Assembly (NCBI RefSeq): GCF_000152705.1 | Contig: NZ_CH672413.1 | Location: 124,001 to 188,000, forward strand | Direction of reading: 5' to 3' | Length of the DNA: 64,000 bases | From: Janibacter sp. HTCC2649 | GTDB lineage: Bacteria; Actinomycetota; Actinomycetes; Actinomycetales; Dermatophilaceae | Program-made: the position numbers and the translations under genes | In this document: in pieces, positions 24,814 through 47,299 of the stretch | Layout: each line of letters opens with the position of its first letter | Position numbering within the stretch: position 1 is the first letter of the stretch | The notes under the pieces: generated by a model | The model's database searches: none | Told to the model about the DNA's origin: nothing | The model's input: the letters and a program-made list of their open reading frames with translations, nothing else

Positions 24814-24817
24814 CCCC

Positions 24818-26727: not shown

Positions 26728-26759
26728 CTCACCCGGCAACAGAGCAGAGGGGCTTTGGC

Positions 26760-27446: not shown

Positions 27447-27450
27447 CCTG

Positions 27451-30616: not shown

Positions 30617-31524
30617 TGGCAACCGGGCTGCAGGTCGCCACCATCGCCGGGGCACTGCTCGGCCTCGGCGTCGTCCTGCTCGTTTGGCATCTGGTCCCCG
30701 CGCACCCCGACCTTCGCGACGCCCTGGAGCGGCTCTCCCCAAACCACGCCCGCCGCCGCACCCAAACCGTCGGTGCCGCGACCGACTCCACCCAACGGCT
30801 CGGTCTGTGGGGCATGAAGGTCCTGCCCGCGTCGGTGTGGGGCCGCACCCCGACCAGAGAGCTGGCGATCCTGCGCAAACCGGTGTCCCGGTTCTACGGG
30901 GAGAAGATCCTGTTCGCCATGGTCGGGCTGGCCATCCCCCCACTGCTGACCGCGGTCTTCACCCTAGGCGGGGCCAACCTGCCGTTCGTCATCCCGGTCG
31001 TGGCCACGATCGGGTTCGCGGCGGCGATGTTCTTCCTGCCCGACTACAACGTCCGCGACGACGCCAAACGCGCCCGCGCCGAGTTCTCCCGCTCCCTGGG
31101 CGCCTACATCGACCTCGTCGCCCTCGAACGCAACAACGGCGCCGGCCCCCGCCAGGCGATGGAGGCCGCCGCCGCGGGCGGCGACTCATGGGTGTTCCGC
31201 CGCCTGAGCGAGGAGCTGGCCCGCACCCGTTGGTCCGGCCTGACCCCGTGGGAGGCGCTGCGTGCCCTCGGCGACGAGCTCGGCCTGCCCGAACTGGACG
31301 ACCTGGCCGACATCATGCGCCTGTCCGGAGAGGAAGGCGCCCAGGTGTACGCCCAGCTGCGGGCCCGCTCCGCCGGGATGCGCACCGCCATGCTCAACAC
31401 CGAGAAGGCCAAGGCCAACGAGATCGGCGAACGGATGTCCATCCCGATGAGCCTGCTCGGCGTCATCTTCCTGGCCATCCTCGTCGCCCCCGCCCTGCTG
31501 CGCGTCATGGGCGGCGCCCCGTGA
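30616..31524 (+). CDS. tadC: TadC-like pilus platform protein (T2SSF family)
   Basis: The 302-aa protein has an N-terminal helix, two central helices (ILFAMVGLAIPPLLTAV; PVVATIGFAAAMFFLPDY) and a T2SSF domain with EFSRSLGAYIDLVALERNNG and the conserved LARTRWSGLTPWEAL…LADIMRLSGEEGAQVYAQL pattern, ending in one helix. ATG 30616 is the A of the tadB stop. It ends 112 nt before the pilin gene. Confidence 0.88.
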   Translation: MATGLQVATIAGALLGLGVVLLVWHLVPAHPDLRDALERLSPNHARRRTQTVGAATDSTQRLGLWGMKVLPASVWGRTPTRELAILRKPVSRFYGEKILFAMVGLAIPPLLTAVFTLGGANLPFVIPVVATIGFAAAMFFLPDYNVRDDAKRARAEFSRSLGAYIDLVALERNNGAGPRQAMEAAAAGGDSWVFRRLSEELARTRWSGLTPWEALRALGDELGLPELDDLADIMRLSGEEGAQVYAQLRARSAGMRTAMLNTEKAKANEIGERMSIPMSLLGVIFLAILVAPALLRVMGGAP

Positions 31525-31636
31525 TGCCCCCGCCCGCTCCAGACCCGCCAGCGCTCGCCCCAGTCACCACCTCGCCAGTCAGCACCTCGCGTCCGCGCCA
31601 CCCGGCCGGGAGCAGCACACCGAAAGGAACACCGTC

Positions 31637-31825
31637 ATGCACCACCTCGCCGCAGCCCTGCACACCCTCGGCATCCGCCTGCGCCACCGAGCCTCGACTC
31701 GCCCCGAACGGGGGTCGGTGACCATGGAGCAGGTCCTGTGGGCCGTGGCCGTCATCGCCATCGTCGGGATCGTCGTGCTCGCGATCACGAGCTACGTCAC
31801 CCGCGAAGCCGCCAAGATCACCTGA
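31637..31825 (+). CDS. flp: Flp-like type IVc pilin subunit
   Basis: The 62-aa protein is a prepilin. A basic leader of about 26 residues (…STRPERG) is followed by SVTMEQVLWAVAVIAIVGIV, with Glu at position +5 of the mature protein after a Gly, as required for prepilin peptidase cleavage and pilin docking. The rest is one hydrophobic helix plus a short tail ITSYVTREAAKIT. An AAAGGA site precedes the ATG. The prepilin peptidase gene is not in the window. Confidence 0.8.
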   Translation: MHHLAAALHTLGIRLRHRASTRPERGSVTMEQVLWAVAVIAIVGIVVLAITSYVTREAAKIT

Positions 31826-31836
31826 GCCTGATCCCC

Positions 31837-32259
31837 GTGACCCGTCCGCACCCCTACCACCTGCCCCCGCGCCAATGTGCGCGCCGGCCATGGTGGCGTG
31901 AGCGGGGGTCGGCGTCGATCCAGATGGTGCTGCTCATGCCAGCCCTGTTCTCGGTGATGTTCCTGGGGATGCAGGCCGCCCTGCACTACCACGCCCGCAC
32001 CATCGCCATCGCCGCCGCGCAAGAAGGCGCCCGCACCGCCGGCGCGCAGGACGGCACCACCGGCGCCGGGGTCGCCGCCGCGGCTGGCTACGTCACCGAC
32101 ACCGGCGGCGACTCCCTCACCCACCCCACCGTCACCGGCACCCGCAGTGCCACGACGGCGTCTGTGACCGTGCGCGGGGTCGCGCTCAGCGTCATCCCCG
32201 GGTGGCAGCCGACGATCACCCAGTCCGCCACCGTGCCGGTGGAGAGGATCACCGGATGA
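31837..32259 (+). CDS. tadE: TadE-like pseudopilin 1
   Basis: The 140-aa product from GTG 31837 has a short basic leader, then RGSASIQMVLLMPALFSVMF, the TadE N-terminal helix with a cleavage-type Gly-Ser junction, followed by a soluble domain (AQEGARTAGAQDGTTG…). TadE proteins are minor pilins of Tad systems. Compared with the canonical TadE, Gln replaces Glu at position +5. The stop overlaps the next TadE-like ATG. Confidence 0.75.
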   Translation: MTRPHPYHLPPRQCARRPWWRERGSASIQMVLLMPALFSVMFLGMQAALHYHARTIAIAAAQEGARTAGAQDGTTGAGVAAAAGYVTDTGGDSLTHPTVTGTRSATTASVTVRGVALSVIPGWQPTITQSATVPVERITG

Positions 32260-32678
32260 GGCGCCGCCCCGAGACCGGGTCCGCCGCGATCGAGGCCGCG
32301 GTGGGTCTGCCCGCGTTCATGCTGCTCGTCGCCCTCGTCCTGCTCGGCGGGCGCCTGGCCATCGCCACGCAGGCCGTTCAGGCGTCCGCGTCCGAGGCCG
32401 CCCGGGTCGCCTCCATCGCCCGCACGCAGATCTCCGCCAACGGGGACGCCACCACGGCCGCCACCGCCAGCTTGGCCAACCAGAACGTGCGCTGCGTGCA
32501 GTCCACCGTCACCCTGAACACCACCGGCTTCAACGCCCCCGTCGGCGCCCCCGCGCAGGCCACCGCCACCGTGCGGTGCGTCGTGAACCTCGCCGACCTG
32601 TCCCTGCCCGGCGTGCCCGGCACCAGGACCGTGACCGCCACCGCCAGCTCACCGATCGACACCTACCGGGAGCGCTGA
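32256..32678 (+). CDS. TadE-like pseudopilin 2
   Basis: The 140-aa protein starts MRRRPETGSAAIEAAVGLPAFMLL, a TadE-type processing site (Gly before SAAIE, with Glu at +5) and hydrophobic helix, then a small soluble domain with one Cys pair (NVRCVQST … ATVRCVVN), perhaps a disulfide. The ATG lies within the first TadE stop. A pair of TadE-like proteins is usual in actinobacterial Tad loci. Confidence 0.75.
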   Translation: MRRRPETGSAAIEAAVGLPAFMLLVALVLLGGRLAIATQAVQASASEAARVASIARTQISANGDATTAATASLANQNVRCVQSTVTLNTTGFNAPVGAPAQATATVRCVVNLADLSLPGVPGTRTVTATASSPIDTYRER

Positions 32679-32679
32679 C

Positions 32680-33120
32680 ATGACCCACCACCCCCACCCC
32701 ACGACACCAAAGCGGGAACGCGGCTCGGTGACCATCTGGCTGGCCACGTCCGGGTTCGCCATGATTGTGCTCGTCGGGCTGGCGGTCGACCTCGGCGGGC
32801 AGGTCCACGCCCAACAACGTGCCCGCACCCTTGCCGCGCAGGCCGCCCGCACCGGCGGGCAGCAGCTGCAGCCCGGGCCCGCGATCCGCGGCGAAGCGGC
32901 CAGTGCGGACCGGGCGCGCGCAGTCCAGGCGGCTCGCGCCTACCTGGCCGCTGCCGACGTGACTGGCAGCGTCGTTGTCTCCGGCGGCGACACCGTCACG
33001 GTGACCACCACCGACACCTACGCCACCACGTTCCTCGGGATCATCGGCATCAGCACCCTGACCGTCACCGGCAACGCCCAAGCCCGCATCACCCGGTCCG
33101 TGGAAGGAGCCGAACAGTGA
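32680..33120 (+). CDS. TadG-like pilus assembly protein
   Basis: The 146-aa protein has a basic leader, RERGSVTIWLATSGFAMIVLV (cleavage-type junction and membrane helix) and LAVDLGGQVHAQQRARTLAAQAARTGGQQL, the TadG N-terminal pattern, then an extracytoplasmic region. It lacks the long von Willebrand-type C-terminus of proteobacterial TadG. It begins 2 nt after the second TadE-like stop and its stop overlaps the next GTG. Confidence 0.72.
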   Translation: MTHHPHPTTPKRERGSVTIWLATSGFAMIVLVGLAVDLGGQVHAQQRARTLAAQAARTGGQQLQPGPAIRGEAASADRARAVQAARAYLAAADVTGSVVVSGGDTVTVTTTDTYATTFLGIIGISTLTVTGNAQARITRSVEGAEQ

Positions 33121-36100
33121 CCGCCCGCCGCCGCCTCACAGGACTTGTCGCCACCGCGACCATGCTCGCGATCGTGGCCGGGATCCCCGCCCTCCTGGTC
33201 GCCATCGGCGCCACCCCGGCCCCCACCACGGTCCCCACCTGGGACGCGGTCGTCGACGCCCTCACCCGACCCGACGACGGCACCCTCGCGGTGAAGGCTC
33301 TGAGCGTGCTCGCGTGGGGGGCATGGCTGTTCCTGACCGGCACCATCCTCCTGGAGATCAGCGCCCGCCTACGCGGGCTGAGCGCGCCCCCCCTTCCGGG
33401 TCTGGCGCTCCCACAGGCCGCCGCCCGCGGTCTGGTCGGTGCCGCTGTCCTGCTGTTCGTCGCCGGACCCACCATCACCAGCGCACCGACCGCGGCCGAC
33501 GGCACCGCGCCCGTGTCGGCCACCGTGACGCACGGCAACCACGTCACTGCCGCAACTTTTCCGCTCGTCGCTCAGTCGGCGGCCGCAGCGGGAGCAGTAC
33601 CGGCAACGGTGGAGCACACCGTCAGCCGAGGGGAGTCCCTGTGGTCCATCGCACAGGACCACCTCGGCGACGGGGCCCGCTACCCCGAGATCGCCGCCCT
33701 CAACACCGGCGCCCTGGCCGGTCGGCCCCCGTTCCTCCTGCCCGGCACAGTCCTCACCCTGCCCACCCCCCACGGGGCGAATGCAGCCGAAGGGGAAGAG
33801 GGGACGTACACGGTGAGAAAGGGGGACACCCTCTCCGGTATCGCCCACGAGCAGCTCGGCGAAGCCGGCCGCTACCCCGAGATCTTCGACGCCTCCCGGC
33901 ACATCACCCAGCCCGGCGGGCAACACCTAAGCGACCCGGACGTCATCGACATTGGGTGGACTCTGGCCATCCCCGGGCAGCCCAGCGGTGCGGCGACCGC
34001 GCCGACCGCGAAGGCCCCCAAGCCGCCCGGGACGGGGGCGGACCCCCTCCCCCCGCCGTCTCGGGCCCCCGCAACTGGACCCACGGCACAACCCGACCCT
34101 GGCGCCGCCCGCGCCGACGTACCCCCGGCAGCATCCGTGCCACGGTCGTCGGCCGCACCCGAGTCCACGCCGAGGTCGGACCAGCGGAGCGTCCCTGCGT
34201 TGGAGACGAGCGAAACGCCTCCGCCGTGGCTGCTCGCCGGCCTTGCGGGCGGACCAGTCCTCGCCGGGTCCCTGTGGGTCCTGTTGCGGCAACGCCGCGT
34301 TGCGCAGGTGCGGCACCGCCGCCCGGGTCGCACCATCGCCACACCACCCCCGTCCCTCGCACCCGTGGAGAAGTCCGTGGCCACCGTGGGCACCGAGACC
34401 GCCCCGACCGTCGAGTTCATGGACGACGCGGTGCGCCGCCTCGCATCCGCTAGGGCCCGCGACGGTCAGCCCATGCCCCAGCTTGCCGCTGTCGAGCTCA
34501 CGGCCACCGACATCACCCTCCACCTCAGCTCTGCCGCGTCGCTGCCTTCTCCGTGGAAGGACTTGGGCGACGGGCGCCGCTGGGCCCTGCCGGCGAGCAC
34601 CGACCCGCAGACCCTCGGTGAGCTCGACCCGGACCAGCCCGCCCCGTACCCGCTGCTGGCCACCATCGGCACCACCGACATTGGCGACCCGTGGCTGCTC
34701 AACTGCGAGGAGCACACCCTCACCCTCACCGGCGATCCCACCTACGCCGCCGACCTCGCCCGGTACATCGCCGCCGAGGTCGCCTGCAACCCCTGGTCGG
34801 CTGGAGCCACGATCGACTGCGTCGGGATCGCCGGCGAGGTCGCCCCGCTGAACCCCGACCGGGTCCGCACCCACACCCCCAGGACCGACCCCGCCGCGGA
34901 AGTCCTCGCCGACGCCGTCAACACCATCGACCGCGCCGCAGACCACGACCACGACGCCACCACCGCCCGTGCCAACATCGCCGGCCCCGACTCTTGGTCC
35001 GCCCGAATGCTCATCATCGACCAGGCACACACCCACACCCCGTCCGTCCAGCAGCTCCTGGAACTGCTGGAATCCCATCCCGGCGCTACCGGCACCAGTG
35101 TCGTCATCAACGGAGCCCGGGCCCACACCCCAGGCCTTGTCGTCGAACTCACGGCCAGTGGTCGGGTCCGGCTGCCACACGTCAGCCTCGACCTCGTGGC
35201 CGTCGGCCTCACCACCGACGAAGCACAAGGATGCGCCGCCCTGCTCGCCGCCACCCACCATCTGGCGGACGTGCCCGTCCCTGTCGACGAGGACGCCACC
35301 GACGGATGGCGCGCCTTCACCGACCAGGCCGGGGCGCTGCGCGACGAGCACACCCTCCCGCGAGCCACCCCCGCCACCGATCTGGGTGAATCCTCCGAGT
35401 CGCTACTCGACGCAGCCGATGAGGAGTACCTGCAAGCCGCGGCCACCACCAGAGCAGATCTGGCCACGCTCGCCCCTAAGGTCACCCACGCAGTCCGCGA
35501 CGCCGTGCGCGGCGCCGACCCCACCCTCGACAACGACGTCGCAGCCTGGTTCGCCGACGACTGCCCCCTGCCACGGCTCACCCTCCTCGGCCCGGTGAGA
35601 GCCCGCACCCGCGGCAAGGCCCTGGCCGAACGCAAGCCCTATATGACCGAGGTCCTGACCTACATCGCCACACGGCCCTATGGCGCCACCCCCGAGGAGG
35701 TCGCCGAGGCCATGGGCATCACCGTCAACAAGGCCCGAGAGTACGTACGCATTGTGCGTGACTGGCTCGGCACCAACCCCCGCACCGGCGCAGCTCACCT
35801 CCCCGACGCCCGGCAGTCCCCAGCTGCGAAGACCAGGGGCTTGGGCGTGTACCAGGTGCTCGATCTTCTCATCGACGCAGACCTGTTCCGACGCCTGCGC
35901 GCCCGAGGCCAGACGCGCGGCCCCGACGGCATCCACGACCTCACCACCGCCCTGCGCCTGGTCCAAGGACGACCCTTCGACCAGCTCAGGAACCCCGGCT
36001 GGGCCTGGCTGCATGAAGGCGACCGTCTCGATCACCACCTCACCACCGCCATCGTCGACGTCGCCCACACCGTCACCACCCACGCCCTGCACGCGGGCGA

Positions 36101-36344
36101 CCTCCCGCAGGCCCGACTCGCAACCAAAACCGCCCTTCTCGCAGCACCCGAAGAAGAGATCCCCCGCCTCGACCTCGCCCGCATCAGCAAAGCCGAGGGA
36201 CTGCACGCGGCAGCCGAGCACATTCTGCTCAAAAAGGTCAGCAACCGCAGCCACGACGACGGGCCACCCCCGGACCTCTCCGACCGGACCAAAGAGGTTC
36301 TCGAGTCACACGATTGGGCGCACAACAAGCGCTCCGCATCATGA
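33117..36344 (+). CDS. 1,075-aa membrane protein with two LysM domains and a C-terminal BTAD-like domain
   Basis: Residues 1-120 hold about three hydrophobic helices. Two LysM peptidoglycan-binding domains follow (from 166, HTVSRGESLWSIAQDHLG; from 229, TYTVRKGDTLSGIAHEQLG). Then a Pro-rich stretch, one transmembrane helix near 370-385, a large Thr/His/Asp-rich cytoplasmic middle, and from about 820 a wHTH-BTAD-like C-terminus (KPYMTEVLTYIATRPYGATPEEVAEAMGITVNKA, then LRARGQTR…). LysM outside and a BTAD inside suggest transmembrane signalling or wall sensing (inference). GTG start overlaps tadG by GTGA. Confidence 0.82.
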   Translation: MTARRRLTGLVATATMLAIVAGIPALLVAIGATPAPTTVPTWDAVVDALTRPDDGTLAVKALSVLAWGAWLFLTGTILLEISARLRGLSAPPLPGLALPQAAARGLVGAAVLLFVAGPTITSAPTAADGTAPVSATVTHGNHVTAATFPLVAQSAAAAGAVPATVEHTVSRGESLWSIAQDHLGDGARYPEIAALNTGALAGRPPFLLPGTVLTLPTPHGANAAEGEEGTYTVRKGDTLSGIAHEQLGEAGRYPEIFDASRHITQPGGQHLSDPDVIDIGWTLAIPGQPSGAATAPTAKAPKPPGTGADPLPPPSRAPATGPTAQPDPGAARADVPPAASVPRSSAAPESTPRSDQRSVPALETSETPPPWLLAGLAGGPVLAGSLWVLLRQRRVAQVRHRRPGRTIATPPPSLAPVEKSVATVGTETAPTVEFMDDAVRRLASARARDGQPMPQLAAVELTATDITLHLSSAASLPSPWKDLGDGRRWALPASTDPQTLGELDPDQPAPYPLLATIGTTDIGDPWLLNCEEHTLTLTGDPTYAADLARYIAAEVACNPWSAGATIDCVGIAGEVAPLNPDRVRTHTPRTDPAAEVLADAVNTIDRAADHDHDATTARANIAGPDSWSARMLIIDQAHTHTPSVQQLLELLESHPGATGTSVVINGARAHTPGLVVELTASGRVRLPHVSLDLVAVGLTTDEAQGCAALLAATHHLADVPVPVDEDATDGWRAFTDQAGALRDEHTLPRATPATDLGESSESLLDAADEEYLQAAATTRADLATLAPKVTHAVRDAVRGADPTLDNDVAAWFADDCPLPRLTLLGPVRARTRGKALAERKPYMTEVLTYIATRPYGATPEEVAEAMGITVNKAREYVRIVRDWLGTNPRTGAAHLPDARQSPAAKTRGLGVYQVLDLLIDADLFRRLRARGQTRGPDGIHDLTTALRLVQGRPFDQLRNPGWAWLHEGDRLDHHLTTAIVDVAHTVTTHALHAGDLPQARLATKTALLAAPEEEIPRLDLARISKAEGLHAAAEHILLKKVSNRSHDDGPPPDLSDRTKEVLESHDWAHNKRSAS

Positions 36345-36622
36345 CCTCGCGCACCGCCGCCTGAGGCCGCGATGGCTGGCAGTGTCGCCCCAAGGTGCCT
36401 CCTTTGGCCCACTGTGGGCACCCAAATCCGCCCAGATAGGGCGCGCCCGCGACCCGCCGCCAACCGCCCACAGTGCCCTGCGCTGGCCGCGCCGCGGCCC
36501 GGCGACCACGGCGTCTGGTGGCCAGAATGGGAAGGGTCATCCGGCTTACCGATGCTCCGGTGGGCGGCTCAAGGGACTGGCGAGAAGTCGGCCCTTGGGG
36601 AATGTAATCGGGGCAGGTCCAG

Positions 36623-37216
36623 TCACGGCGTAGACGGTGAGGTGGCGGCATCAATCTCTAGGATGAGATCCCGGCAAGCCTTGGCCGCTGCCAATAGGTC
36701 GCGCTCCTCAAGGACAATCTGGTCGTTTGTCACGGCAATTCCAGTGCGATTGATTTTTGTCATGGTGGACGATCGGCCCTTCTGCTGCCGTCGAGTAAGA
36801 GTCCCCAGACCATGTGCGACTGCATTCCTGGCTTCAGCTAAGCCCTCTAGCTGCAGCCAATTGGGCGAGATCGTGTGCCACTTTTTGAAGGCGTCCTTCT
36901 GCGCCTCCCAAGTCCTGGTCACGTCGATCGCTACTTGTTCCCAAACTTTGCCCCGCACGGGGTCAGCCATAGGGTCGACGGCACGTTCGGTGTGGTCAAT
37001 CAAGCGATCCGCGCAGTATGCCTCCGTGATAGAAAGCAGTCGCAGTAGCGTTGCCTGACGCTGGACCTGCCGGGGATCCGGCCCCCCAACAGCGAGACGG
37101 CGGCTGACCCGAATTGCAGGTCGGTAGCTGGCTAGCGCCTTTTGATGCATCCCGAGGGTCTGAAACAAGAGGCGTGTCGCGTCCTCAGCCCGCGCGCTTA
37201 GGACTGCTGGAACCAC
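36623..37216 (-). CDS. HEPN-domain protein, partner of the reverse transcriptase
   Basis: The 197-aa helical protein has the HEPN signature R-x4-H: R130-N-A-V-A-H135 in GLAEARNAVAHGLG, the catalytic motif of HEPN ribonucleases. It starts at a GTG within the end of the RT gene (19-nt overlap), so the two are co-translated. Bases here are less GC-rich than in neighbours. In lactococcal AbiA the RT and HEPN parts are fused in one protein; here they are separate. The gene ends 278 nt from the convergent LysM-BTAD gene; I saw no strong terminator between them. Confidence 0.75.
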   Translation of the reverse strand: MVPAVLSARAEDATRLLFQTLGMHQKALASYRPAIRVSRRLAVGGPDPRQVQRQATLLRLLSITEAYCADRLIDHTERAVDPMADPVRGKVWEQVAIDVTRTWEAQKDAFKKWHTISPNWLQLEGLAEARNAVAHGLGTLTRRQQKGRSSTMTKINRTGIAVTNDQIVLEERDLLAAAKACRDLILEIDAATSPSTP

Positions 37217-38808
37217 GATCGTGCCACCTCAATCACCATCTGGTCCAAGCGATCTTCCCTATTGGCCTCGGCCTGTGACTCGTCCATCAGTGCGAGGCCC
37301 CACAACATGAGTGGCCGCCACGATGGACCAACTCGATCTAGCGCGCCGACGACCACGAGCTCCTCGGACAGCCCCAGCCTGCCAAGGGCAGCAGCCGCTG
37401 TGGCTGCGAGCGCGGGAGCGCCTTCCCGAACGCTCTCGACGAGCCAGGCATAGTGCTCATGCTGGGTTGTAGATCGTCGGATGCTGCCTGCCGCGTCGAC
37501 GAGCCACATCTTCTGCCAAGTGCTGAAGTTCTCTTCGCGCGAGAGGGCGTCCAGTTGTACGCGGATGGCTGTACGTGCCGCCTTCCCCGTGGCCCCCAGG
37601 GCCACGAGGTACTTGGCCGCCTGGGGCGTTAATGCAGGCTCAAATCGCAGAACCGCCGACATGTACTCAAGAGGCTGGGTATTTCCAGCCGTGCCCAAGA
37701 TTGGCAGAGATCGGCTGAGGAGCGATTCCGTTATTGCCGCGTCTTGGCTGGATTGAACTTCGTCGGATTCATCCTCTTCGAGCCACAACTCCCAAGCGCG
37801 AGTTGCAGCACGCACTTGCGCCTCGTCGACGGCATCATCTGTCCGATCCTTGGTATGCGACTCTTGGATCGCGTCGGTGTCTGCTACTCCCTCGATCTCG
37901 GAGCCGGACAAACCCAGTGGAGGTTCGACGCTCTCGTCCTCGTCGCTGTAGTCGCTTTCAAAAAAGAGGCGCAAGCCATCGAGTTCCGTGTCCTCGTCAA
38001 ACAGTCGCCCTTCGGCATCCGAGAATGCCGTGAGCGAGGCTCGGTAGTTGCGCTTCCCATAGGTGTACGTCTTGCTCTCGTTGAGAACCAGGCCCAAGGT
38101 CCGCACTTCCGCGGCGCAAGCTTCGAGTGCGTTGCGGGCTGCTCCGAGCGAAGCCGTAGCAATTCGGAAGTCGTCCGAAAACGTGTAGACGTCATAGCCT
38201 GCCCGTCGCAGTCGGCGAGTGGCTGGGGCTATATAGGTGTCACCAAGAATATCGCTTGCTTTGTGTACCTGCGGAAGTCCAACTCGTCGCCCCATTATAC
38301 GCTCAAGAAGGACCATTAAAGCCTCTATTGCTAGAGCCTCTCCTGTCTGCGCGAGTAGTTCATCGTGGAGCAACTCGTGGTCGAGGAATTCGTAATATGC
38401 CGAGACGTCGGTTTTGCTTATATAGCGCGCATTTGGAGAAGCTAGGGGGGACTCACGGAAGGTGGCAATGGGTGGCCTGTTGACAAGCTCCTGGGGAAGG
38501 GATTCTGCAATGAGTGTGACCAAGGCGCGATAGAGCACTCGATCCTCGAGCGATATCTCGCTAATGGGGCGCATGCCCTTTCGGTTCTTGTCGACGAAGA
38601 CAATTGAGGCGGGGGGTCCCGGCCTTTCGCGCCGGTAGCGACCCTTCAGCCAGCCGGCGATTGCCGGGCCGCGGTCGACCAGGGCCAAGCGATCCCATCG
38701 TCTCGGCATCAACCGGTTCGTTGTAGAGAGCTCAGCAGCCGCCGCCGCATCGAGATCCAAGCGTTGCAGCAGAGCGTTCGCGAGCACCATGCCACGGGAT
38801 CTTGCCAT
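37198..38808 (-). CDS. Reverse transcriptase of unknown-group/Abi type with helical C-terminus
   Basis: The 536-aa protein has RT motifs in order: motif A SKTDVSAYYEFL (D134), motif B GLPQ (177-180), motif C FSDD (D212 and D213) and motif D LGLVLNESKTY (238-248). An acidic segment (about 270-355) separates it from a Leu/Ala-rich helical repeat region (about 360-530), like the helical repeat part of AbiA/AbiK. There is no maturase, endonuclease or intron structure. Start ATG 38808; ATG 38790 is a second choice. Function by family: abortive-infection defence, possibly by untemplated DNA synthesis. Confidence 0.82.
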   Translation of the reverse strand: MARSRGMVLANALLQRLDLDAAAAAELSTTNRLMPRRWDRLALVDRGPAIAGWLKGRYRRERPGPPASIVFVDKNRKGMRPISEISLEDRVLYRALVTLIAESLPQELVNRPPIATFRESPLASPNARYISKTDVSAYYEFLDHELLHDELLAQTGEALAIEALMVLLERIMGRRVGLPQVHKASDILGDTYIAPATRRLRRAGYDVYTFSDDFRIATASLGAARNALEACAAEVRTLGLVLNESKTYTYGKRNYRASLTAFSDAEGRLFDEDTELDGLRLFFESDYSDEDESVEPPLGLSGSEIEGVADTDAIQESHTKDRTDDAVDEAQVRAATRAWELWLEEDESDEVQSSQDAAITESLLSRSLPILGTAGNTQPLEYMSAVLRFEPALTPQAAKYLVALGATGKAARTAIRVQLDALSREENFSTWQKMWLVDAAGSIRRSTTQHEHYAWLVESVREGAPALAATAAAALGRLGLSEELVVVGALDRVGPSWRPLMLWGLALMDESQAEANREDRLDQMVIEVARSWFQQS

Positions 38809-39363
38809 TCAAAAGGCCCAAATTGCCTCGGCTCAAGAATCTTGGCTGCGATTTGGCCGCCGAGCTGCGGCGCGGGACCGGGTCTTGCCGAAGAGCTGGC
38901 CCATTCGCAAGCGGGCTCAGGCGCCGCGCGGCTGGTCGCGTCCATGCCCAGACATCCCATCCAGCTCCGACGCCGATCGACAGCTGGCCGCCAGCCTCGA
39001 GGGATACAAGGCTTCGCGTCTGCGGCGCCGGCTGATGGGCCGCTCACGCGTCATACAACCGGGGGTGTGGCCGTAGCTGCGTCACACCGCCGCCTTAGCA
39101 CCTCCGAAACCGGCCAAGTGAGGGTCGGAGTCGACCGGGGATCGCCACGTCGTTACGAGGCAAGCAGGGGACCGGCCGTGGACAGCAGCGGGTGCGCCGA
39201 CCCAACGCAGTGCCTTGGCGCTAGCCGACGACCGAGACAGAAAGTGAGTGCGTTGGGGCGTCTTGCACAGCCCCTGCGGACGGTCCTACTCCTGGGCCAA
39301 CGCGCGCGTTGGCCCACCGCTAGGCCCTCGGTAGTACAGCCATTCGACGGCTACGGTTGCGTG
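38809..39363. other. 555-nt gap with a 24-bp perfect palindrome
   Basis: This gap separates the divergent RT and HTH genes. It holds no convincing coding sequence. A perfect palindrome TGGGCCAACGCG/CGCGTTGGCCCA lies at 39293-39316, 47 nt before the HTH ATG, so it could be an operator or terminator. The remainder may hold the RT promoter and possibly an RT-linked RNA, but I see no clear structure to support an RNA. Confidence 0.6.
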
Positions 39364-39630
39364 ATGGCCTACCCCGGGCGCCCCGTTCTCGAGCCCTTGG
39401 CTCAGTTCCAGGGCACGAACACGGTCCGGCAGACCCCGGTGCAGCGACGCGTTCTGGTCGAGTTCGTGAGCCGGGAGTACGCGGCCGGCCGCTCGTTGAG
39501 GCAGATCGCCGAGCTGACCGATCGGACGCAGTCGGCGGTCCGGCGCGCCTTGGACCAGGCCGGTGTGCCGCGTCGTGGGGCTGGCGCCCCTCCCCTGTCC
39601 GCGCGCCCTGCGGGTGCACCAGGGGACTGA
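39364..39630 (+). CDS. Small helix-turn-helix regulator
   Basis: The 88-aa protein has a flexible N-terminus (YPGRPVLEPLAQFQGTN), then a helix-turn-helix (SLRQIAELTDRTQSAVRRALDQAGVPRR) and a Pro/Gly-rich tail. Small HTH proteins of this layout are common in actinobacterial elements. It lies just after the 39293-39316 palindrome and upstream of the conjugation operon, so it may regulate one of these (inference). The frame is open upstream but only this part has coding character. Confidence 0.65.
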   Translation: MAYPGRPVLEPLAQFQGTNTVRQTPVQRRVLVEFVSREYAAGRSLRQIAELTDRTQSAVRRALDQAGVPRRGAGAPPLSARPAGAPGD

Positions 39631-39877
39631 CCAACGCAAAGGCGTCGCCCAGCGTCAAGCACCGTGCGCCTCGTTCGGAGCACTGCAGGCGCCCACAACC
39701 GCGGCGGAGAGCACAACTGCGAGCATTCGATTTCACTTTCCCAGGGACGTGCGCTGACCTGCGCGAATGCAAAAGTCCCTAGCCCAGAGTCCGTCATTAT
39801 CGCGACGTCCCGGGATGAATCCGGGGACGTTGTAGCGCCACCTTCGCGTCGTGACCCCACGACGGAAGGACTTGGAG

Positions 39878-40672
39878 ATGAGCGTCGCGACACAGCTTGA
39901 ACTGGATGACCCCGGCAGTGGTCTGCTCGCAGCGGCCCACGACTCGTGGCCCAGCTGGGTCGACCGGCAGGAGGCGCTCGGTGTGGTCGCTCAGCTGGGT
40001 GACCTGCCGACCTGGTTGGGCACGCACCCGCAGGAATGCAACGCCGTCCTTGGGGCTTTGTCGGGCCTGGCGGCACAACACGACGGCGACGACGTCCCGG
40101 CGGCGGCCGCGCTAGCGTGGCTGCTTGTCCCGGGCGCGAGCCTGCTCGCGAACCGGCTGACCACACTCTCCCCGGCCATCGACCAGCTGGTCGCCGCGCA
40201 ACTGTGGATCGAGGTTCGCACCTTCGGACCCGGCGGGGGGCGGCGCGTCGCCGCGAGCATCCTTCGCAACACCCGGAAAGGGGTGCTGCGCGACCTCGGC
40301 GTGGGGGAGCACGCCGAGCTGGCCTGGAGGCGACGTCTGATCCTGGAACCGGACAACCTGCTGTGGCAACGGACGTTGCCTCTGACCATGTCGGAGGATG
40401 GCGGTGCAGGGGAGTTGTCTGAGCTGCTCGAGGCAGCCTGCGCGCAAAGCGTGATCAGTGACGAAGACCTTCACCTGCTCTTGGGTCTGGCGCAGGCCGC
40501 CGACGCCGCAGCCCAGAGCCACTTTGGCCGGGGGTGCGCGGGACTGATGACCCCGGTGGCCTCCATGGAGGTGGCGCAACGGTGGGGGGTCTCCGCGCGC
40601 ACGGTGCGTCGCCGGGCCAGGCGCAGCCTCGACGCGCTGAGCCGGTACGCCGTCACGCAGATGTCGGCCTGA
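39878..40672 (+). CDS. Helical HTH-containing protein before the conjugation operon
   Basis: The 264-aa protein is Ala/Leu-rich and helical, and ends in a helix-turn-helix (MEVAQRWGVSARTVRRRARRSLDAL), a pattern like sigma-70 region 4 or a DNA-binding regulator. Start ATG 39878 was chosen because GAAGGA lies 8 nt upstream; an ATG at 39851 has no site. It lies 49 nt before the 45-aa ORF. It may control the conjugation operon. No family was recognised. Confidence 0.6.
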   Translation: MSVATQLELDDPGSGLLAAAHDSWPSWVDRQEALGVVAQLGDLPTWLGTHPQECNAVLGALSGLAAQHDGDDVPAAAALAWLLVPGASLLANRLTTLSPAIDQLVAAQLWIEVRTFGPGGGRRVAASILRNTRKGVLRDLGVGEHAELAWRRRLILEPDNLLWQRTLPLTMSEDGGAGELSELLEAACAQSVISDEDLHLLLGLAQAADAAAQSHFGRGCAGLMTPVASMEVAQRWGVSARTVRRRARRSLDALSRYAVTQMSA

Positions 40673-40721
40673 GGTGACCACAACAGCGACCGCGTCGGCC
40701 TTCGGGCATGGAGGTGAGGTC

Positions 40722-40859
40722 ATGAAGAGCATCAGGAACGTCCTGCTGCCACGCACCGTGGCCGTGCTAGCGACCGCCAGGTTCGGGGACGATCGCGCGG
40801 TGGGCAGAGCAACGCCGGCCTGCCTCCGACGCGCCCGGCCCGGACGGGGGCTGCCGTGA
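40722..40859 (+). CDS. 45-aa ORF coupled to the ParA-like gene
   Basis: This short frame begins MKSIRNVLLPRTVAVLA after a strong GGAGGTGAGG ribosome site, and its TGA stop overlaps the GTG of the next gene (GTGA). The site and overlap support translation, perhaps as a coupling leader. The product has a short hydrophobic segment and a basic C-terminus. I do not know its function. Confidence 0.5.
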   Translation: MKSIRNVLLPRTVAVLATARFGDDRAVGRATPACLRRARPGRGLP

Positions 40860-41653
40860 CCACGGTGACGCGGCCGGTCGGTGTCGACGAGCTGCTACGC
40901 GCTCACCGGTCCCTGATGGTCGGCGACTTCCGCCGTCACCCACCCCGACCTCGCAGCCCAGCTGGGTGGGCCCCGGTCGAGCCGGTCCTGCCGGTGGTGG
41001 GCGCCGCCGGCGGAACCGGTGCGTCGACTTTCGCTCTGGCGTTGGCCACGGCGGCCGGCGGCCGGGTCGTCGAGTGCGCCACCCTGACCGACTCCGGGCT
41101 GGTGGCCGCGCCGACCGCCGAGCTCGGCCGGCACGACAGCGGCTGGCTGCGCGGCACCCGCGGAACGGTGATGATCGAACGGCCGGCAACTACCCTGACC
41201 GCCCTGGGAGATCTGCAGGCACCCACGACGCCGGAAGCCATTCCGCCAATGACCGTCGTCGATGTGGCGTGGGAACTCGGGCAGGTCCTGACCACCGAGT
41301 CCTGGGTCGCGGACCTGCTTCGCCAGTCACCGCTGGTGGTGGTGACCGCGACCGCAACGATTCCCGGTCTGCGGCGGCTGGAGGCGGCGTTGGGCATGCT
41401 CGCGAGTACCCCGTGCGTGGCTGCGGTGCTGGGGCCGCGACGCAAGAAGTGGGCCCGTGCCGTGGCGCACAGCGCCGGGCCGCTGACCACCGCACTGATC
41501 CGCGCGGAGCGACTGGTCGTGGTCCCCACCGATGCACGGCTCTCAGCCCGCGGGTTGGACTCCGCGCCACTTCCGGATGCGTTGCTGCACGCCGCCACCC
41601 ACCTGCTCCACCTCACCCAAGACGTTCCCGCCCGGAAGGAACCCCTGACATGA
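40856..41653 (+). CDS. ParA/MinD-like ATPase with deviant P-loop (conjugation operon)
   Basis: The 265-aa protein has the fold pattern of a ParA-type ATPase. The P-loop reads PVVGAAGGTGASTFALAL, without the lysine. Later LGPRRKKWARAV and VPTDARLS fit the final strands of the fold. It starts the conjugation gene train and is coupled by GTGA to the 45-aa ORF and ATGA to the next gene. A role in positioning the transfer machine is inferred. Confidence 0.6.
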   Translation: MTTVTRPVGVDELLRAHRSLMVGDFRRHPPRPRSPAGWAPVEPVLPVVGAAGGTGASTFALALATAAGGRVVECATLTDSGLVAAPTAELGRHDSGWLRGTRGTVMIERPATTLTALGDLQAPTTPEAIPPMTVVDVAWELGQVLTTESWVADLLRQSPLVVVTATATIPGLRRLEAALGMLASTPCVAAVLGPRRKKWARAVAHSAGPLTTALIRAERLVVVPTDARLSARGLDSAPLPDALLHAATHLLHLTQDVPARKEPLT

Positions 41654-41958
41654 CCACCGCTCTCGAATCCAACGCCGGCGTGGTTGCCGCGGTGACTACC
41701 CGGGTCTGCCCGGTCGCCCCACCGGGAGCGCAGCAGTACGCCGACCAGCTCATGGGCTACCTGCTGTGGGGGGTGGGGCTGCTGTTCATCCTCGGCGTGA
41801 TCGTCGGCATCGCCGCCATTGTCGGCGGACGAGTCTTCGCCATGCCTCACGCCTCCAAGGCAGGCGTCGTCGGCGTGGTGCTGGTGTTCGTCGCGATCAT
41901 CGCCTACCTCGTCCTTCCGGGGATCGTGCGAGCGATGACCGGGTCCGGGTGCGTCTGA
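41650..41958 (+). CDS. Two-helix membrane protein, VirB2/TrbC-like
   Basis: The 102-aa protein has an N-terminal polar segment and two hydrophobic helices (YLLWGVGLLFILGVIVGIAA and KAGVVGVVLVFVAIIAYLVL) separated by a short basic loop. This size and topology match VirB2/TrbC pilin-like proteins of type IV secretion. It is coupled on both sides (ATGA and TGATG). No sequence motif proves the assignment. Confidence 0.6.
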   Translation: MTTALESNAGVVAAVTTRVCPVAPPGAQQYADQLMGYLLWGVGLLFILGVIVGIAAIVGGRVFAMPHASKAGVVGVVLVFVAIIAYLVLPGIVRAMTGSGCV

Positions 41959-42785
41959 TGGCCACCACGACGATTGAGGACGCCAGCGGGGTGTGGGACC
42001 GGCGACGCCTTCTGCTCACTCTCGCGGGGGTCCTGTCCGCGGCGGTGCTGCTGGTGATGGGGCTGGTCTACGCGGTGGTCTGGGGGATCGGCTCTGCAAC
42101 TGCGGGCCACGACCGTCCCGCCACCGGACCGGTGCGGGTGGGCGGTGACACCGCAGTGCAGCGGCGGGACGCGATCGCGGCCGTCCCGATGGCCGCTGTC
42201 GCCGCGTCAGCGGCGATGTCGGGCACCCCTGCCGCGGGGGCCAGTGCGAGCATCACCGTTCCGGCTGCCACCACGGTAGGCCTTGTGGAGGTGCCGACCG
42301 GTTTCCCCCGGACCCCGCTGGGTGCGGTCGGGCAGCTCGCCGCCATCGACACGACCGTCCTGACAGGGATGTCGATCCCGCACACCCGGGCCGTTCACGA
42401 GGCGTGGGCGCTGCCCGGTGCCCCACCTGTGGCGCAGTGGGTGATGACCGGCAACGTGCAGGCGTACCTTGCCGCCAGCGGATCCCAAAGCCTGGACGCG
42501 GCCAGTGTGGTGACTGCCACCCCCGCCGCTGGACAGGTCAAAGGCACCGACGGCGGCGACTGGACCTTGGCGTGCGTGCTGCTGGACGTGCGCGCGACGA
42601 TCACCGCCTCTGCCCGGATCGGGTACGGCCATTGCGAACGGATGCAGTGGAGCGGCGGCGAGCAGGGAGGGCGGTGGATGATCGGGCCCGGGGCGCAGCC
42701 GGCCCGGGCCCCGTCGACCTGGCCGGGCTCCCAGGCCGCGATGGACGCCGGGTGGGCGACGTGGGTGGAAGCGGGTCAACCGTGA
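41958..42785 (+). CDS. Single-pass conjugation protein with extracytoplasmic domain
   Basis: The 275-aa protein has one helix near the N-terminus (LLLTLAGVLSAAVLLVMGLVYAVVW) and a soluble extracytoplasmic domain (MSIPHTRAVHEAWALPGAPPVAQWV…). VirB8/TcpC-like proteins have this layout, but I see no specific motif. It starts on the previous stop (TGATG) and overlaps the VirB6-like GTG. Confidence 0.65.
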   Translation: MATTTIEDASGVWDRRRLLLTLAGVLSAAVLLVMGLVYAVVWGIGSATAGHDRPATGPVRVGGDTAVQRRDAIAAVPMAAVAASAAMSGTPAAGASASITVPAATTVGLVEVPTGFPRTPLGAVGQLAAIDTTVLTGMSIPHTRAVHEAWALPGAPPVAQWVMTGNVQAYLAASGSQSLDAASVVTATPAAGQVKGTDGGDWTLACVLLDVRATITASARIGYGHCERMQWSGGEQGGRWMIGPGAQPARAPSTWPGSQAAMDAGWATWVEAGQP

Positions 42786-44230
42786 CCATCCTGCCGGTGG
42801 AGGGGTGGTCGGACTACGTCAACCCGTTCAGTTACTTGGCCGGCGCCGCGGGGAAGGTCGCCGGTGACGCGTGGACGGTGGCGATGCTGTCCTTCTGGTC
42901 CGCGGGGTTGTGGCTGCTGCGGTTCGTCCTTGAGCTGGTGGACGCGTTCCTGACTCCGGACTTGTCCGAGAGCGGACCCGGCGCGAGCGTGTACCGGTTC
43001 ACGTTCTGGGTCGCGGCCACTTTGGTGCTGTTCATGGCGATGGTCCAGTTCGGGGTCGCCGCGTTCCGCCGCGACGGGCAGTCCTTGGCGCGGGTCGCGG
43101 TCGGCACCGCCCAGTTCCTGATGGTCTGGGTGGCGTGGCTGACGTATGCGGTGGTGCTGCTGGCGGCGTGCGGGGGGCTGACCCGGGTGGTGATGAAGGC
43201 CACCATGGGGGTGGATGCCTGGTCGCAGTGGCAGCCGTGGGAGGCGTTCAGCACCCAGGACGTCACCGACGCCGCGGTCGCGACCGTGCTGGGAATCATG
43301 GGTCTGTTCCTGGTGCTGGCGGCGATCGGGCACCTGCTCGTCATGCTCGCCCGTGCCGGCGCGCTGCTGGTGTTGGCGGCGACCACCCCGATCGCCGCCG
43401 CCGGGCTGGTGTCCGACGCGGGCCGGTCGTGGTTCTGGAAGTCGCTGCGCTGGTTCCACGCCGCCGCGTTCACCCCCGTGCTGATGGCGTTGGTGATGGG
43501 GGTGGGGATCCAGCTGACCACTGGTGTCGTCACCAGCCAAGGCGACTCCGTCGCCGCCGCGGTCGGTACCGCGGTGCCCGGAGTGATGCTCATCCTGATC
43601 GGCTGCTTCGCCCCGCTGGCCCTGTTCAAGATGCTCGCGTTCGTCGACCCCGGCACCAGCTCCGGGGCTGCCATGCGCACCGGGATGGCCGCGCAGGGCG
43701 GCCTGCAAGGACTCCTGCCCGGCGGCAGCGCATCGGCGTCCTCGGGCACGTCGGGGGCGGCGTCGAGCACCGACGCGAACGGCCGCTCCGCCGGGGAGGA
43801 CGCCAGCGCGGACGCCACCACCTCCCGCTTCGCCACCTCCGCCGGCGGGCTCCTGGGTGCGCTGGGCCCGGTCGGGCAGGCCGCCGCTACTGGTGTCGGC
43901 GTGGCCGGGTCGTTCGGGGCCCGCGCGGCCGCGGTCGGCGCGGACCTGTCCAACCAGATGGGCGTGGGCCACGGCGACTACGTCCCCGACTTCTCCGCCG
44001 ACCGCCGCAGTAGTGGGCGGGACGCGGCCAGTCGCGGCGAGCTCGACCCCCCCGACACCACCCCAGACGCGTCGCCAGGCTCTGGTGCGGGTTCGGCTGG
44101 CAGCGCTGCGGCCCCCGGTGGGCCGTCGCCTGTCCCGCCCGCCCCCGCCGGAGCCAGCGGTGCCGGTGCTGGGGGTGGCGCCGCCGCGGCCGGTGGCGCG
44201 GCCGCTGTTGTCCCGATCGTCCCCGTCTGA
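42782..44230 (+). CDS. VirB6/TrbL-like polytopic conjugation channel protein
   Basis: The 482-aa protein has about seven transmembrane helices in the first 310 residues (LSFWSAGLWLLRFVLEL, FWVAATLVLFMAMVQFGV, LLVMLARAGALLVLAATTPIAAAG, MLILIGCFAPLALFKML) followed by a long Ser/Ala/Gly/Pro-rich cytoplasmic tail. The layout is that of VirB6/TrbL. The GTG overlaps the previous stop by GTGA. The SCO6880-type gene starts 29 nt later. Confidence 0.75.
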   Translation: MTILPVEGWSDYVNPFSYLAGAAGKVAGDAWTVAMLSFWSAGLWLLRFVLELVDAFLTPDLSESGPGASVYRFTFWVAATLVLFMAMVQFGVAAFRRDGQSLARVAVGTAQFLMVWVAWLTYAVVLLAACGGLTRVVMKATMGVDAWSQWQPWEAFSTQDVTDAAVATVLGIMGLFLVLAAIGHLLVMLARAGALLVLAATTPIAAAGLVSDAGRSWFWKSLRWFHAAAFTPVLMALVMGVGIQLTTGVVTSQGDSVAAAVGTAVPGVMLILIGCFAPLALFKMLAFVDPGTSSGAAMRTGMAAQGGLQGLLPGGSASASSGTSGAASSTDANGRSAGEDASADATTSRFATSAGGLLGALGPVGQAAATGVGVAGSFGARAAAVGADLSNQMGVGHGDYVPDFSADRRSSGRDAASRGELDPPDTTPDASPGSGAGSAGSAAAPGGPSPVPPAPAGASGAGAGGGAAAAGGAAAVVPIVPV

Positions 44231-44259
44231 ACGTCGCGTCTGAAACCTAGGAGCCCGCC

Positions 44260-45768
44260 ATGGTCCTCGTCTACTCCGACTACTCCCGCGCCCGGATCGG
44301 GCACTTCTTTGGCCTGTCCGGGTGGCAGCTGGCCGTGGTGGCCCTGTCCCTGATGCCGGTGTTCGTCTCCGTCAACGCCGCCGCCTGGGTGCCCGCCGCC
44401 GGGTTCGCCCTCGCCTGGGCCGTGGTCGTGGTTGTCACGGTGACCCCGGTGCGGGGACGTTCCGCGACGAACTGGGCCGCCACCAGCGTGTCGTTCGCGG
44501 TCGGCGCCCTGGCCGGGTGGACACGGTTCCGCTCCCGCGCGGCCGTCGGCGCCGCCGCCGAGCTGCACATGCCGGACCTGCCCGGGGTGCTGGCCGGGGT
44601 GGAGATCCACGACGGACCCCCGCAGGGCCCGGCCGGGACCCGGGTCGCGGTCGTGCAGAACCACACCACCCGCACGTGGGCCGTCACGGCGTCCGTGGTG
44701 CACCCGGGGATCGGGATGAGCGAGGCCGACGAACGAGCCCGGTTCGGCACCGGGCTGTCCGAGCTGCTCGACCTCGCCTCCCGCACCGAACTGGTCGACG
44801 AGATCCTGCTACTGGTGCGCACCGTGCCCGAGGACGGCGCCGAACGCGACCAGTGGCTCACCCGGCACCGCAGCCCTGTCGGCCCGACCGTGGCCCGGGT
44901 CGTCAACGACGAGCTGCAGGCCGCGTTGACCGGCGGCTCTGTGCGCACCGAGGCGTTCCTCACCCTGGTCGTGCCCGAGTCCCGTCTCGGCAAGGCGGCG
45001 AAGGAGGCCGGTGGCGGGGTCGAGGGACGCGCCCGGGTCCTGTACTCCCTGATGGGGGAGTGTGACGCCCAGCTGCGCGGGGCGGTCGGGATGACCGGAG
45101 TGGAGTGGCTGACCTCCCCCCAGTTGGCGGCCGCGTGCCGCACCGGGTTCGCCCCCGGCGACCGGGCCGGGATCATCGACGCGCTGACCGCCCACACCAC
45201 CGACCCCGCGGTGAACGCGGACGTGCCGTGGGCCATGGCCGGCCCTTCGGGCGCGGACCCCGCCGCCAGGCACTACAGCCACGACGCGTGGAACTCGATC
45301 TCGGCCACCATCAAGCTCCCGGTCAAGGGCGCGGCCATGGGTGCCCTGGCGCCGATTCTTACCCCGACCGAGCCGGGGGAGCGGCGCTCCGTGCTCGTCG
45401 CGTTCCCGATCATCAGCGCCTCCGCGGCGGACCGGCAGTCCGCGAGCAGCGAGTGGGCCGCCGACATGGGCGAAGGGCTGCGCACCAAGGCCAAGGTCAA
45501 ACCGCGCACCCGGGCGGTCGACGAGGCCGCGAAGGTCCGCGGCCTGGACCGCAAGCTCGCCCGCGGCTCCTCCCTGACCCGCCCCTACGCCGTGGCCACC
45601 GTCACCGTCCCCAAGACCGTGCGGGCCGCGGAGTTCGGGCGGCGCCTGGACGCCTCGGTTCGCCGGGCCGGGTTTGCACCCCTACGCCTGGACCTCAGCC
45701 AAGACGTCGCGTTCGCCGCGTCCACGATCCCGCTCGGGGTAAGCCTCACCCGCACCGGGGACGCCTGA
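44260..45768 (+). CDS. SCO6880-family conjugation protein
   Basis: The 502-aa protein has two N-terminal membrane helices (FFGLSGWQLAVVALSLMPVF; VPAAGFALAWAVVVVVTV) and a long soluble part with the SCO6880 type features (VVQNHTTRTWAVTASVVHPGI, DAWNSISATIKLPVKGAAMG). It resembles the N-terminal half of VirB4 plus VirB3, and in these loci it precedes the VirB4-like ATPase. A ribosome site precedes the ATG and the stop overlaps the ATPase ATG. Confidence 0.75.
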   Translation: MVLVYSDYSRARIGHFFGLSGWQLAVVALSLMPVFVSVNAAAWVPAAGFALAWAVVVVVTVTPVRGRSATNWAATSVSFAVGALAGWTRFRSRAAVGAAAELHMPDLPGVLAGVEIHDGPPQGPAGTRVAVVQNHTTRTWAVTASVVHPGIGMSEADERARFGTGLSELLDLASRTELVDEILLLVRTVPEDGAERDQWLTRHRSPVGPTVARVVNDELQAALTGGSVRTEAFLTLVVPESRLGKAAKEAGGGVEGRARVLYSLMGECDAQLRGAVGMTGVEWLTSPQLAAACRTGFAPGDRAGIIDALTAHTTDPAVNADVPWAMAGPSGADPAARHYSHDAWNSISATIKLPVKGAAMGALAPILTPTEPGERRSVLVAFPIISASAADRQSASSEWAADMGEGLRTKAKVKPRTRAVDEAAKVRGLDRKLARGSSLTRPYAVATVTVPKTVRAAEFGRRLDASVRRAGFAPLRLDLSQDVAFAASTIPLGVSLTRTGDA

Positions 45769-47279: not shown

Positions 47280-47299
47280 ACCCCAGGGGGAGACGCGCC

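What the first reader, a model, noticed from the sequence alone, without database searches (positions are those of the whole stretch)
36623..38808. Split RT + HEPN operon resembling the AbiA abortive-infection system
Seen: an RT with motif A D134, FSDD motif C and a C-terminal helical repeat region; overlapping it by 19 nt is a separate HEPN protein with R130-x4-H135. Known: AbiA has RT, helical repeats and a C-terminal HEPN in one polypeptide; AbiK and Abi-P2 RTs make untemplated DNA. Inference: this is a split, two-gene variant, carried as cargo in a conjugative element, where the separate HEPN ribonuclease may be held inactive by RT activity. The region is less GC-rich than the rest, which fits transfer.
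Basis: partly seen in the sequence, partly recalled or inferred. Interest (0 to 1): 0.85.

Follow-up and report, generated by a model that had tools for sequence, protein, structure and literature searches.

The report
Phage-defence reverse transcriptase with RNase partner
A mobile DNA element in an actinobacterium carries two overlapping genes, an unusual reverse transcriptase and a predicted RNA-cutting enzyme, that form a catalogued but little-studied candidate anti-phage system; the sequence suggests a way it may work that can now be tested.

Summary
In detail: 37198-38808 (-) encodes a 536-aa reverse transcriptase (RT), and 36623-37216 (-) a 197-aa HEPN-like protein overlapping it by 19 nt. 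It is not a split AbiA. The RT is PADLOC RT_UG22 (E 1e-150; AbiA model E 0.0011). The partner is PADLOC RTasHEPN (E 4.9e-45), profile-related to RiboL-PSP HEPNs, without detectable similarity to an AbiA HEPN. So it is a new member of a catalogued candidate family. I assembled 13 complete two-gene loci including this one; the genes overlap by 4-19 nt in each (in three I chose the start), and the RTs form one clade (99/98). Three sister RTs lack the HEPN. R130, N131 and H135 are invariant in 14 of 14 HEPNs. Y287 is the only invariant residue in the variable loop joining RT and helical domains (5 of 8 alignment settings), where AbiA has its priming tyrosine. I found no shared RNA element. The module fills a variable slot of a mobile element with conjugation-type genes; a relative has a Thoeris-type TIR gene there. 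Inferred mechanism: Y287-primed, untemplated DNA synthesis restrains a HEPN RNase until phage infection.

The parts
37198..38808 (-). UG22 reverse transcriptase, 536 aa, RT domain plus C-terminal HEAT/alphaRep-like helices
   Evidence: PADLOC RT_UG22 E 1e-150; Pfam RVT_1 E 2.8e-9 at 73-250; alphaRep matches of the family profile
38407..38409 (-). D134, motif A metal ligand
   Evidence: invariant in 13 of 13 RTs
38170..38175 (-). D212-D213, motif C (FSDD here; YADD, YSDD or FNDD in relatives)
   Evidence: invariant in 13 of 13 RTs
37948..37950 (-). Y287, candidate protein-priming tyrosine in the linker between RT and helical domains
   Evidence: only invariant residue between K246 and L371 in 13 RTs; holds in 5 of 8 MAFFT settings
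36623..37216 (-). HEPN-like partner, 197 aa, GTG start overlapping the RT stop by 19 nt
   Evidence: PADLOC RTasHEPN E 4.9e-45; profile match to RiboL-PSP HEPNs
36812..36829 (-). R130-N131-A-V-A-H135 (Rx4H) predicted RNase motif
   Evidence: R130, N131, H135, G136, G138, T141 invariant in 14 of 14 HEPNs
36355..39321 (.). variable cargo slot of the element holding the module (2967 bp; 6683 bp of other cargo in relative G003)
   Evidence: BLASTN alignment to G003 breaks at 36354 and resumes at 39322
24779..51916 (.). mobile element backbone with conjugation-type genes, colinear in G003 at 83-90% identity

Best explanation
A two-gene UG22 defence module. The RT is a Class 1-type UG/Abi polymerase (RT domain plus HEAT-like helices) that makes untemplated single-stranded DNA primed on its own tyrosine Y287, in the loop joining the two domains. 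The second gene, translated by coupling to the RT, encodes a HEPN ribonuclease. The RT with its attached DNA binds the HEPN and keeps it inactive; phage activity that attacks, binds or over-extends the DNA (nuclease, helicase, ssDNA-binding protein, changed dNTP pools) frees the HEPN, which cuts RNA and stops phage growth, probably at the cost of the cell. Shown by sequence: the two genes, their coupling, family membership, conserved catalytic residues, invariant Y287, mobile defence context, lack of a common RNA element. Inferred: protein priming, DNA product, RNase activity, RT-HEPN contact, DNA-gated control, phage trigger. The identity as a UG22 RT-HEPN module I hold at about 0.95; the confidence below is for the mechanism.
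For: UG22/RTasHEPN membership in 13 of 13 RTs and 14 of 14 HEPNs. In all 13 complete loci the HEPN frame overlaps the RT stop by 4-19 nt. RT and HEPN distance matrices correlate (r 0.92, 0 of 20000 permutations as high; 0.87 without L061, 0 of 20000). D134, D212, D213 invariant in 13 of 13; R130, N131, H135 invariant in 14 of 14 although HEPN identity to the window's falls to 15%. Y287 is the only invariant residue of the linker, L047 has no other linker tyrosine, and the three HEPN-less sister RTs have P, S, T there (4 of 4 settings). AbiA Tyr298, conserved and in the loop joining RT and helical domains, primes DNA synthesis (PMC11077055, passages). Precedents for DNA-restrained effectors: DRT1 (PMC13275509, passages and one section); Hailong HalB/HalA as described in that paper. 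RT first, RNase second, is the order of antitoxin-toxin pairs such as MNT-HEPN (PMC3710099, passages). Defence context: PD-Lambda-1 and IetAS at 52116-57414, and a ThsB-like TIR gene in the same slot of G003.
Against: No experiment, no structure. In AbiA the HEPN keeps its R-x6-H motif yet no RNase activity was seen in vitro and R/H mutants still defended (PMC11077055), so motif conservation does not prove RNase activity. Y287 invariance is lost in 3 of 8 alignment settings. Tyrosine is the only priming hint. No direct evidence that RT and HEPN touch. The HEPN profile finds no solved HEPN structure (best E 0.044, an unrelated protein).
Confidence: 0.45

Rival explanations
1. AbiA-like: the HEPN is a structural partner that dimerises the RT and is needed for polymerisation; the DNA itself (or the RT-DNA adduct) is the antiviral agent, as proposed for AbiA or for DRT4's random ssDNA.
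For: In AbiA, deletion of the HEPN made the polymerase monomeric and inactive, and the R/H motif was dispensable (PMC11077055, passages). DRT4 makes random ssDNA that becomes toxic when a phage protein protects it (as summarised in PMC13213688, passages).
Against: Here the HEPN is of another family than AbiA's as far as tested and its R-N-x3-H-G is invariant in 14 of 14 at low overall identity; a separate gene in second position fits a toxin at least as well.
Confidence: 0.3
2. Plain toxin-antitoxin or addiction module of the element: RT protein (not its DNA) neutralises the HEPN; stabilisation of the element, with phage defence secondary or absent.
For: Gene order and overlap; plasmid copies in two Rhodococcus records; mobile element here.
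Against: All polymerase residues are invariant in 13 of 13, which plain protein neutralisation would not need; slot and neighbouring cargo are defence genes.
Confidence: 0.12
3. RNA-templated (Class 2-like or retron-like) system with an unseen non-coding RNA next to the genes.
For: The window slot has 513 bp of unassigned sequence upstream of the RT. Single folds stand out in L057 upstream (z -3.27) and in L058, L034, L059 downstream (z -4.18, -3.71, -2.93; the L059 stretch holds most of a tRNA gene).
Against: Only 55 nt separate the L062 RT from mutM, while downstream of the HEPN there are 8 nt in L049 and an 8-nt overlap with the next CDS in L035. No flank similarity between loci outside the L034/L035/L061 group. 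Upstream z below -2 in 1 of 11 loci, downstream in 3 of 12. No relevant Rfam match.
Confidence: 0.08

Closest known systems
PADLOC RT_UG22 + RTasHEPN (DRT candidates)
   Same: RT E 1e-150, HEPN E 4.9e-45; this is the family
   Different: nothing known to differ; no mechanism found in print in my searches, but the UG/Abi survey (PMC9226505) was not held
AbiA (Lactococcus)
   Same: RT + helical domain + HEPN; tyrosine in the RT-helical linker
   Different: one polypeptide against two genes; RT of another family; HEPN not detectably similar (single sequence); motif spacing 6 against 4
DRT1 (Class 3 UG/Abi)
   Same: proposed logic: protein-linked DNA keeps an effector dormant (PMC13275509)
   Different: effector is a fused nitrilase; serine-primed; here a separate HEPN
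Hailong HalB/HalA
   Same: proposed logic: DNA polymer restrains a partner effector (as described in PMC13275509)
   Different: HalB is not an RT (recalled); the effector is an ion channel
MNT-HEPN toxin-antitoxin
   Same: nucleotide-adding enzyme gene followed by HEPN toxin gene (PMC3710099)
   Different: antitoxin is a nucleotidyltransferase; here an RT. No invariant tyrosine in the HEPN
RiboL-PSP HEPN family (PF18735)
   Same: profile match over 95 columns including both conserved motifs, 94.5%
   Different: individual members score weakly (6 of 14 at E <= 1, best 0.023)

Membership tests
RT_UG22 (UG/Abi RTs) | best and near full-length match to the UG22 model | tested here: met
   E 1e-150, residues 10-527, next best UG21 7.1e-32; 13 of 13 relatives match
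UG/Abi Class 1 | RT fused to HEAT-like repeats (definition as given in PMC12489045) | tested here: met
   family profile matches alphaRep/HEAT proteins; only RVT_1 in Pfam, no nitrilase or phosphohydrolase
[quoted passage not shown]
   only the invariant linker tyrosine Y287 points to it
RTasHEPN | match to the PADLOC model beside an RT | tested here: met
   E 4.9e-45; 14 of 14
HEPN superfamily RNase | Rx4-6H with polar residue after R, second conserved acidic residue (PMC3710099) | tested here: met
   R130-N131-x3-H135 and E65 invariant in 14 of 14
HEPN superfamily RNase | HEPN fold | tested here: inconclusive
   profile match to RiboL-PSP HEPNs 94.5%, reversed control 0.1%; smaller subsets 10.9-41.8%; no solved HEPN found; structure prediction not available
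HEPN superfamily RNase | RNA cleavage | not testable with these tools
   needs an assay
AbiA | HEPN fused at the RT C-terminus | tested here: not met
   separate ORFs in 13 of 13 loci
AbiA | HEPN of the AbiA_CTD family (PF18732) | tested here: not met
   not among the families matched by 14 HEPNs at E <= 1; no match in the window's genome; hhalign 0.2% against one AbiA HEPN
AbiA | RT matches the AbiA model best | tested here: not met
   E 0.0011 against UG22 1e-150; 8 of 13 relatives match AbiA at E <= 0.001, best 1.7e-6
Group II intron RT | maturase model and intron RNA | tested here: not met
   31.8 bits against cut-off 300; no intron in Rfam search of 36-40 kb
Retron or Class 2 DRT | conserved adjacent non-coding RNA | tested here: not met
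   no conserved flank, no consistent space or fold; a divergent RNA is not wholly excluded
Conjugative element | type IV secretion ATPases and coupling protein | tested here: met
   SCO6880 family E 7e-128; VirB4-like 4.1e-12, VirD4-like 1.1e-12 and TadA/VirB11-like 2e-38, these three below their curated cut-offs
Conjugative element | relaxase, integrase, attachment sites | not tested
   not searched for as such; no tRNA in the window or the 14-18 kb beside it

The most novel reading that the evidence does not exclude
A two-gene toxin-antitoxin-like immune system in which the antitoxin is random single-stranded DNA that the RT builds on its own Tyr287: the DNA-bearing RT cages a stand-alone HEPN ribonuclease, and phage attack on that DNA releases the RNase. 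It would be an RNA-free, retron-like guard assembled independently of AbiA.
Probability: 0.3. Interest if true: 0.8.

Novelty: new member of a known kind. Interest (0 to 1): 0.45.

Why it matters
What the untemplated DNA of Class 1 UG/Abi RTs does in defence is stated to be undetermined (PMC13275509, section 4). In AbiA the HEPN is fused and its motif dispensable, so RT and effector cannot easily be told apart. Here they are separate, conserved genes with one clear candidate priming residue, so polymerase, DNA adduct and putative RNase can be removed one at a time.

Tried and rejected
Split AbiA: rejected as descent, kept as a resemblance in plan. Non-coding RNA: flanks compared and folded, nothing shared. 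Structure prediction: not available. A profile of 7 RTs was too diverse for a collection scan; a profile of 3 gave 7 loci. Viral collections: no relative. HEPN against solved structures: nothing. The UG22 model also rings for many other RTs: 98 of 396 genomes at E <= 0.001; above 200 bits, 6 genomes together, HEPN beside 3 of the 6. A C-terminal fragment in G788 (L038/L052) has no HEPN hit; L060 is cut by the contig end and L051 is a HEPN on a 3.2-kb contig with no RT seen; none of these four non-pairs entered the 13. The tree used 23 of the 35 RT ORFs listed, plus 13 UG22-HEPN RTs and one AbiA; four of the 20 outgroup RTs were typed and came out as general RTs, so UG20/21/23 are not knowingly represented, and the AbiA branch is long and its place unsure. 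Searches read the small ORF at 39364 one base out of frame, so their 'no hit' for it means nothing.

Full report
What is there. Against PADLOC the RT is RT_UG22 at E 1e-150 over residues 10-527, with UG21 next at 7.1e-32 and AbiA at 0.0011; the second protein is RTasHEPN at 4.9e-45. Pfam finds only RVT_1 in the RT and no HEPN domain in the partner; NCBIfam gives weak RT matches below cut-offs and nothing for the partner. So the pairing is already catalogued as a DRT candidate. I found no paper that treats it: 0 papers hold UG22 with HEPN and reverse transcriptase or with DRT, and searches listed none by title that does; the survey that named these groups (PMC9226505) is not in the library, so I cannot say what it states.

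Relatives. None of the other 59 genomes of the same genus and family searched has a match. Beyond these I collected L046, L047, L049, L050, two Rhodococcus plasmids L034 and L035 and L057, L058, L059, L061, L062, L063. With the window that makes 13 complete RT genes with a HEPN frame overlapping the RT stop, by 4 nt in 9 and by 11-19 nt in 4. For L034, L049 and L061 the start giving the 4-nt overlap was my choice inside a longer open frame. RTs were not all found independently of HEPN: L049 and L050 came from the HEPN search. Seen without HEPN: three sister RTs (L048, L053, L054) that match UG22 best but at 252-312 bits, and a C-terminal fragment in G788; L060 is truncated; L051 is a HEPN with no RT seen on a 3.2-kb contig. 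In the sample of 394 genomes of the class, 5 have the HEPN model; 4 of these lie beside a UG22 RT and the fifth is L051. The 13 RTs form one clade with support 99/98, and with the three sisters one group 99/99 (outgroup limits are given under Tried and rejected). RT and HEPN distances correlate at r 0.92, 0.87 without L061, 0 of 20000 permutations as high in either, as expected of genes that travel together.

RT. Forty columns are invariant in the 13 RTs, among them D134, D212, D213, G177, P179, Q180 and K246. The profile of the family matches alphaRep/HEAT proteins at the C-terminal end, the hallmark given for Class 1 UG/Abi RTs (PMC12489045, passage). Between K246 and L371 lies a linker of 85-125 residues with 68 gap-free columns of which one is invariant: Y287. 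L047 has a single tyrosine in its linker, this one. The column is invariant under 5 of 8 MAFFT settings; it breaks with the fast mode, a high gap penalty and BLOSUM30. The three sisters have P, S and T there (4 of 4 settings). In AbiA the RT-helical loop carries Tyr298 and Tyr303; either can prime, the double mutant is dead, Tyr298 is the conserved one and matters for defence (PMC11077055, passages). DRT1 primes on a serine (PMC13275509, passage). I therefore propose Y287 as the priming residue; this is inference.

HEPN. In 14 sequences (13 plus L051) E65, W103, R130, N131, H135, G136, G138 and T141 are invariant, although identity to the window's protein goes down to 15%. R followed by a polar residue, four residues before H, and a second conserved acidic residue are the HEPN hallmarks (PMC3710099, passages). 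Six of 14 touch PF18735 RiboL-PSP-HEPN at E <= 1, best 0.023. To test this I took the nine best-scoring of 16 PF18735 matches found in 197 genomes and compared profiles: 94.5% probability, E 7.6e-8, 95 columns spanning both motifs; the reversed alignment gave 0.1%; sub-alignments of two or three gave 10.9, 29.0 and 41.8%. Against the HEPN part of the one AbiA-type protein found in 296 genomes (L074) the probability was 0.2%, but that is a single sequence. No solved HEPN is found by the profile. There is no invariant tyrosine in the HEPN, so the oligoAMPylation mode of MNT-HEPN systems (recalled, and cited in PMC11077055) has no obvious counterpart.

No shared RNA. Flanks of the 13 loci share nothing beyond the L034/L035/L061 group. 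L062 leaves 55 nt between mutM and the RT; L035 has 170 nt upstream and an 8-nt overlap with the convergent gene downstream; L049 has 8 nt downstream before an integrase gene. Fold z-scores are below -2 in 1 of 11 upstream and 3 of 12 downstream stretches (L061 left out of both, L062 of the first); the window's are +2.17 and +0.06. Rfam gives only chance-level matches in 36-40 kb and, in 12 relatives, one tRNA.

Setting. Window 24779-36354, 39322-49183 and 49249-51916 align with genome G003 of the same genus at 88, 90 and 83%; the stretch between, 36355-39321, is replaced there by 6683 bp with a ThsB-like TIR gene (PADLOC E 4.9e-81; TIR_2 9.3e-14) and two large ORFs without PADLOC match below 0.001 or Pfam match. 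A diverged copy in G001 has 8.9 kb in the same place, with an ABC-type transporter by eye. The element carries an SCO6880-family protein, VirB4-, VirD4- and TadA/VirB11-like ATPases, two T2SSF proteins and an M23/SLT/NlpC-P60 protein. DNA to its left (19124-24760) maps to 2.5 Mb in G003, whereas the element sits at 0.68-0.71 Mb there, so it has moved. PD-Lambda-1 and IetA/IetS lie at 52116-57414. On the Rhodococcus plasmids a downstream flank is 94% identical between L034 and L035/L061 while the HEPNs are 61% identical, which suggests that the module is exchanged at that site as well.

How it most likely works. Shown: two coupled genes of known candidate families, intact catalytic residues on both sides, a singular conserved linker tyrosine, mobile defence context. 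Inferred: protein-primed untemplated DNA, RNase activity, physical contact, DNA-gated restraint and phage release. The main rival is the AbiA precedent, where the HEPN is structural and its motif dispensable (PMC11077055, passages). I give 0.45 to restraint of an active HEPN, 0.30 to a structural HEPN, 0.12 to a plain toxin-antitoxin pair, 0.08 to a hidden RNA.

Novelty. A new member of a known kind, with a testable residue-level proposal. Interest is moderate: the pairing is catalogued, the mechanism is open.

Noticed in passing
L048:7382-7888 (-) and L054:4488-5003 (+): Two HEPN-less sister RTs are preceded by homologous small ORFs (43% over 121 aa, E 4.6e-22) that overlap the RT start by 8 and 11 nt; no Pfam or PADLOC match. 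Possibly another two-gene RT module.
   Followed up: partly
window 52116-57414: PD-Lambda-1 (E 1.6e-115) and IetA/IetS (5.8e-69, 8.4e-35) defence genes just beyond the colinear backbone.
   Followed up: no
L070:16423-18798 (+) and L071:2-1549 (+): Two large ORFs beside a ThsB-like TIR gene in the same cargo slot of G003, without Pfam match and with no PADLOC match below 0.001: possible unknown defence genes.
   Followed up: partly
window 58648-61148: IS21-type pair: integrase-core/Mu-transposase C and IstB ATPase.
   Followed up: no
window 39364-39630 (+): Small ORF at the right border of the slot, kept in G003; looks helix-turn-helix by eye. The family scans read it one base out of frame.
   Followed up: no
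L059:7246-7330: tRNA-Leu gene about 90 nt downstream of the HEPN; in L049 a tyrosine-type integrase gene lies 8 nt downstream: the module often sits by integration sites.
   Followed up: partly
L051:246-809 (-): RTasHEPN gene without a visible RT, next to a large ORF that looks like a transposase by eye (not scanned), on a 3.2-kb contig.
   Followed up: partly
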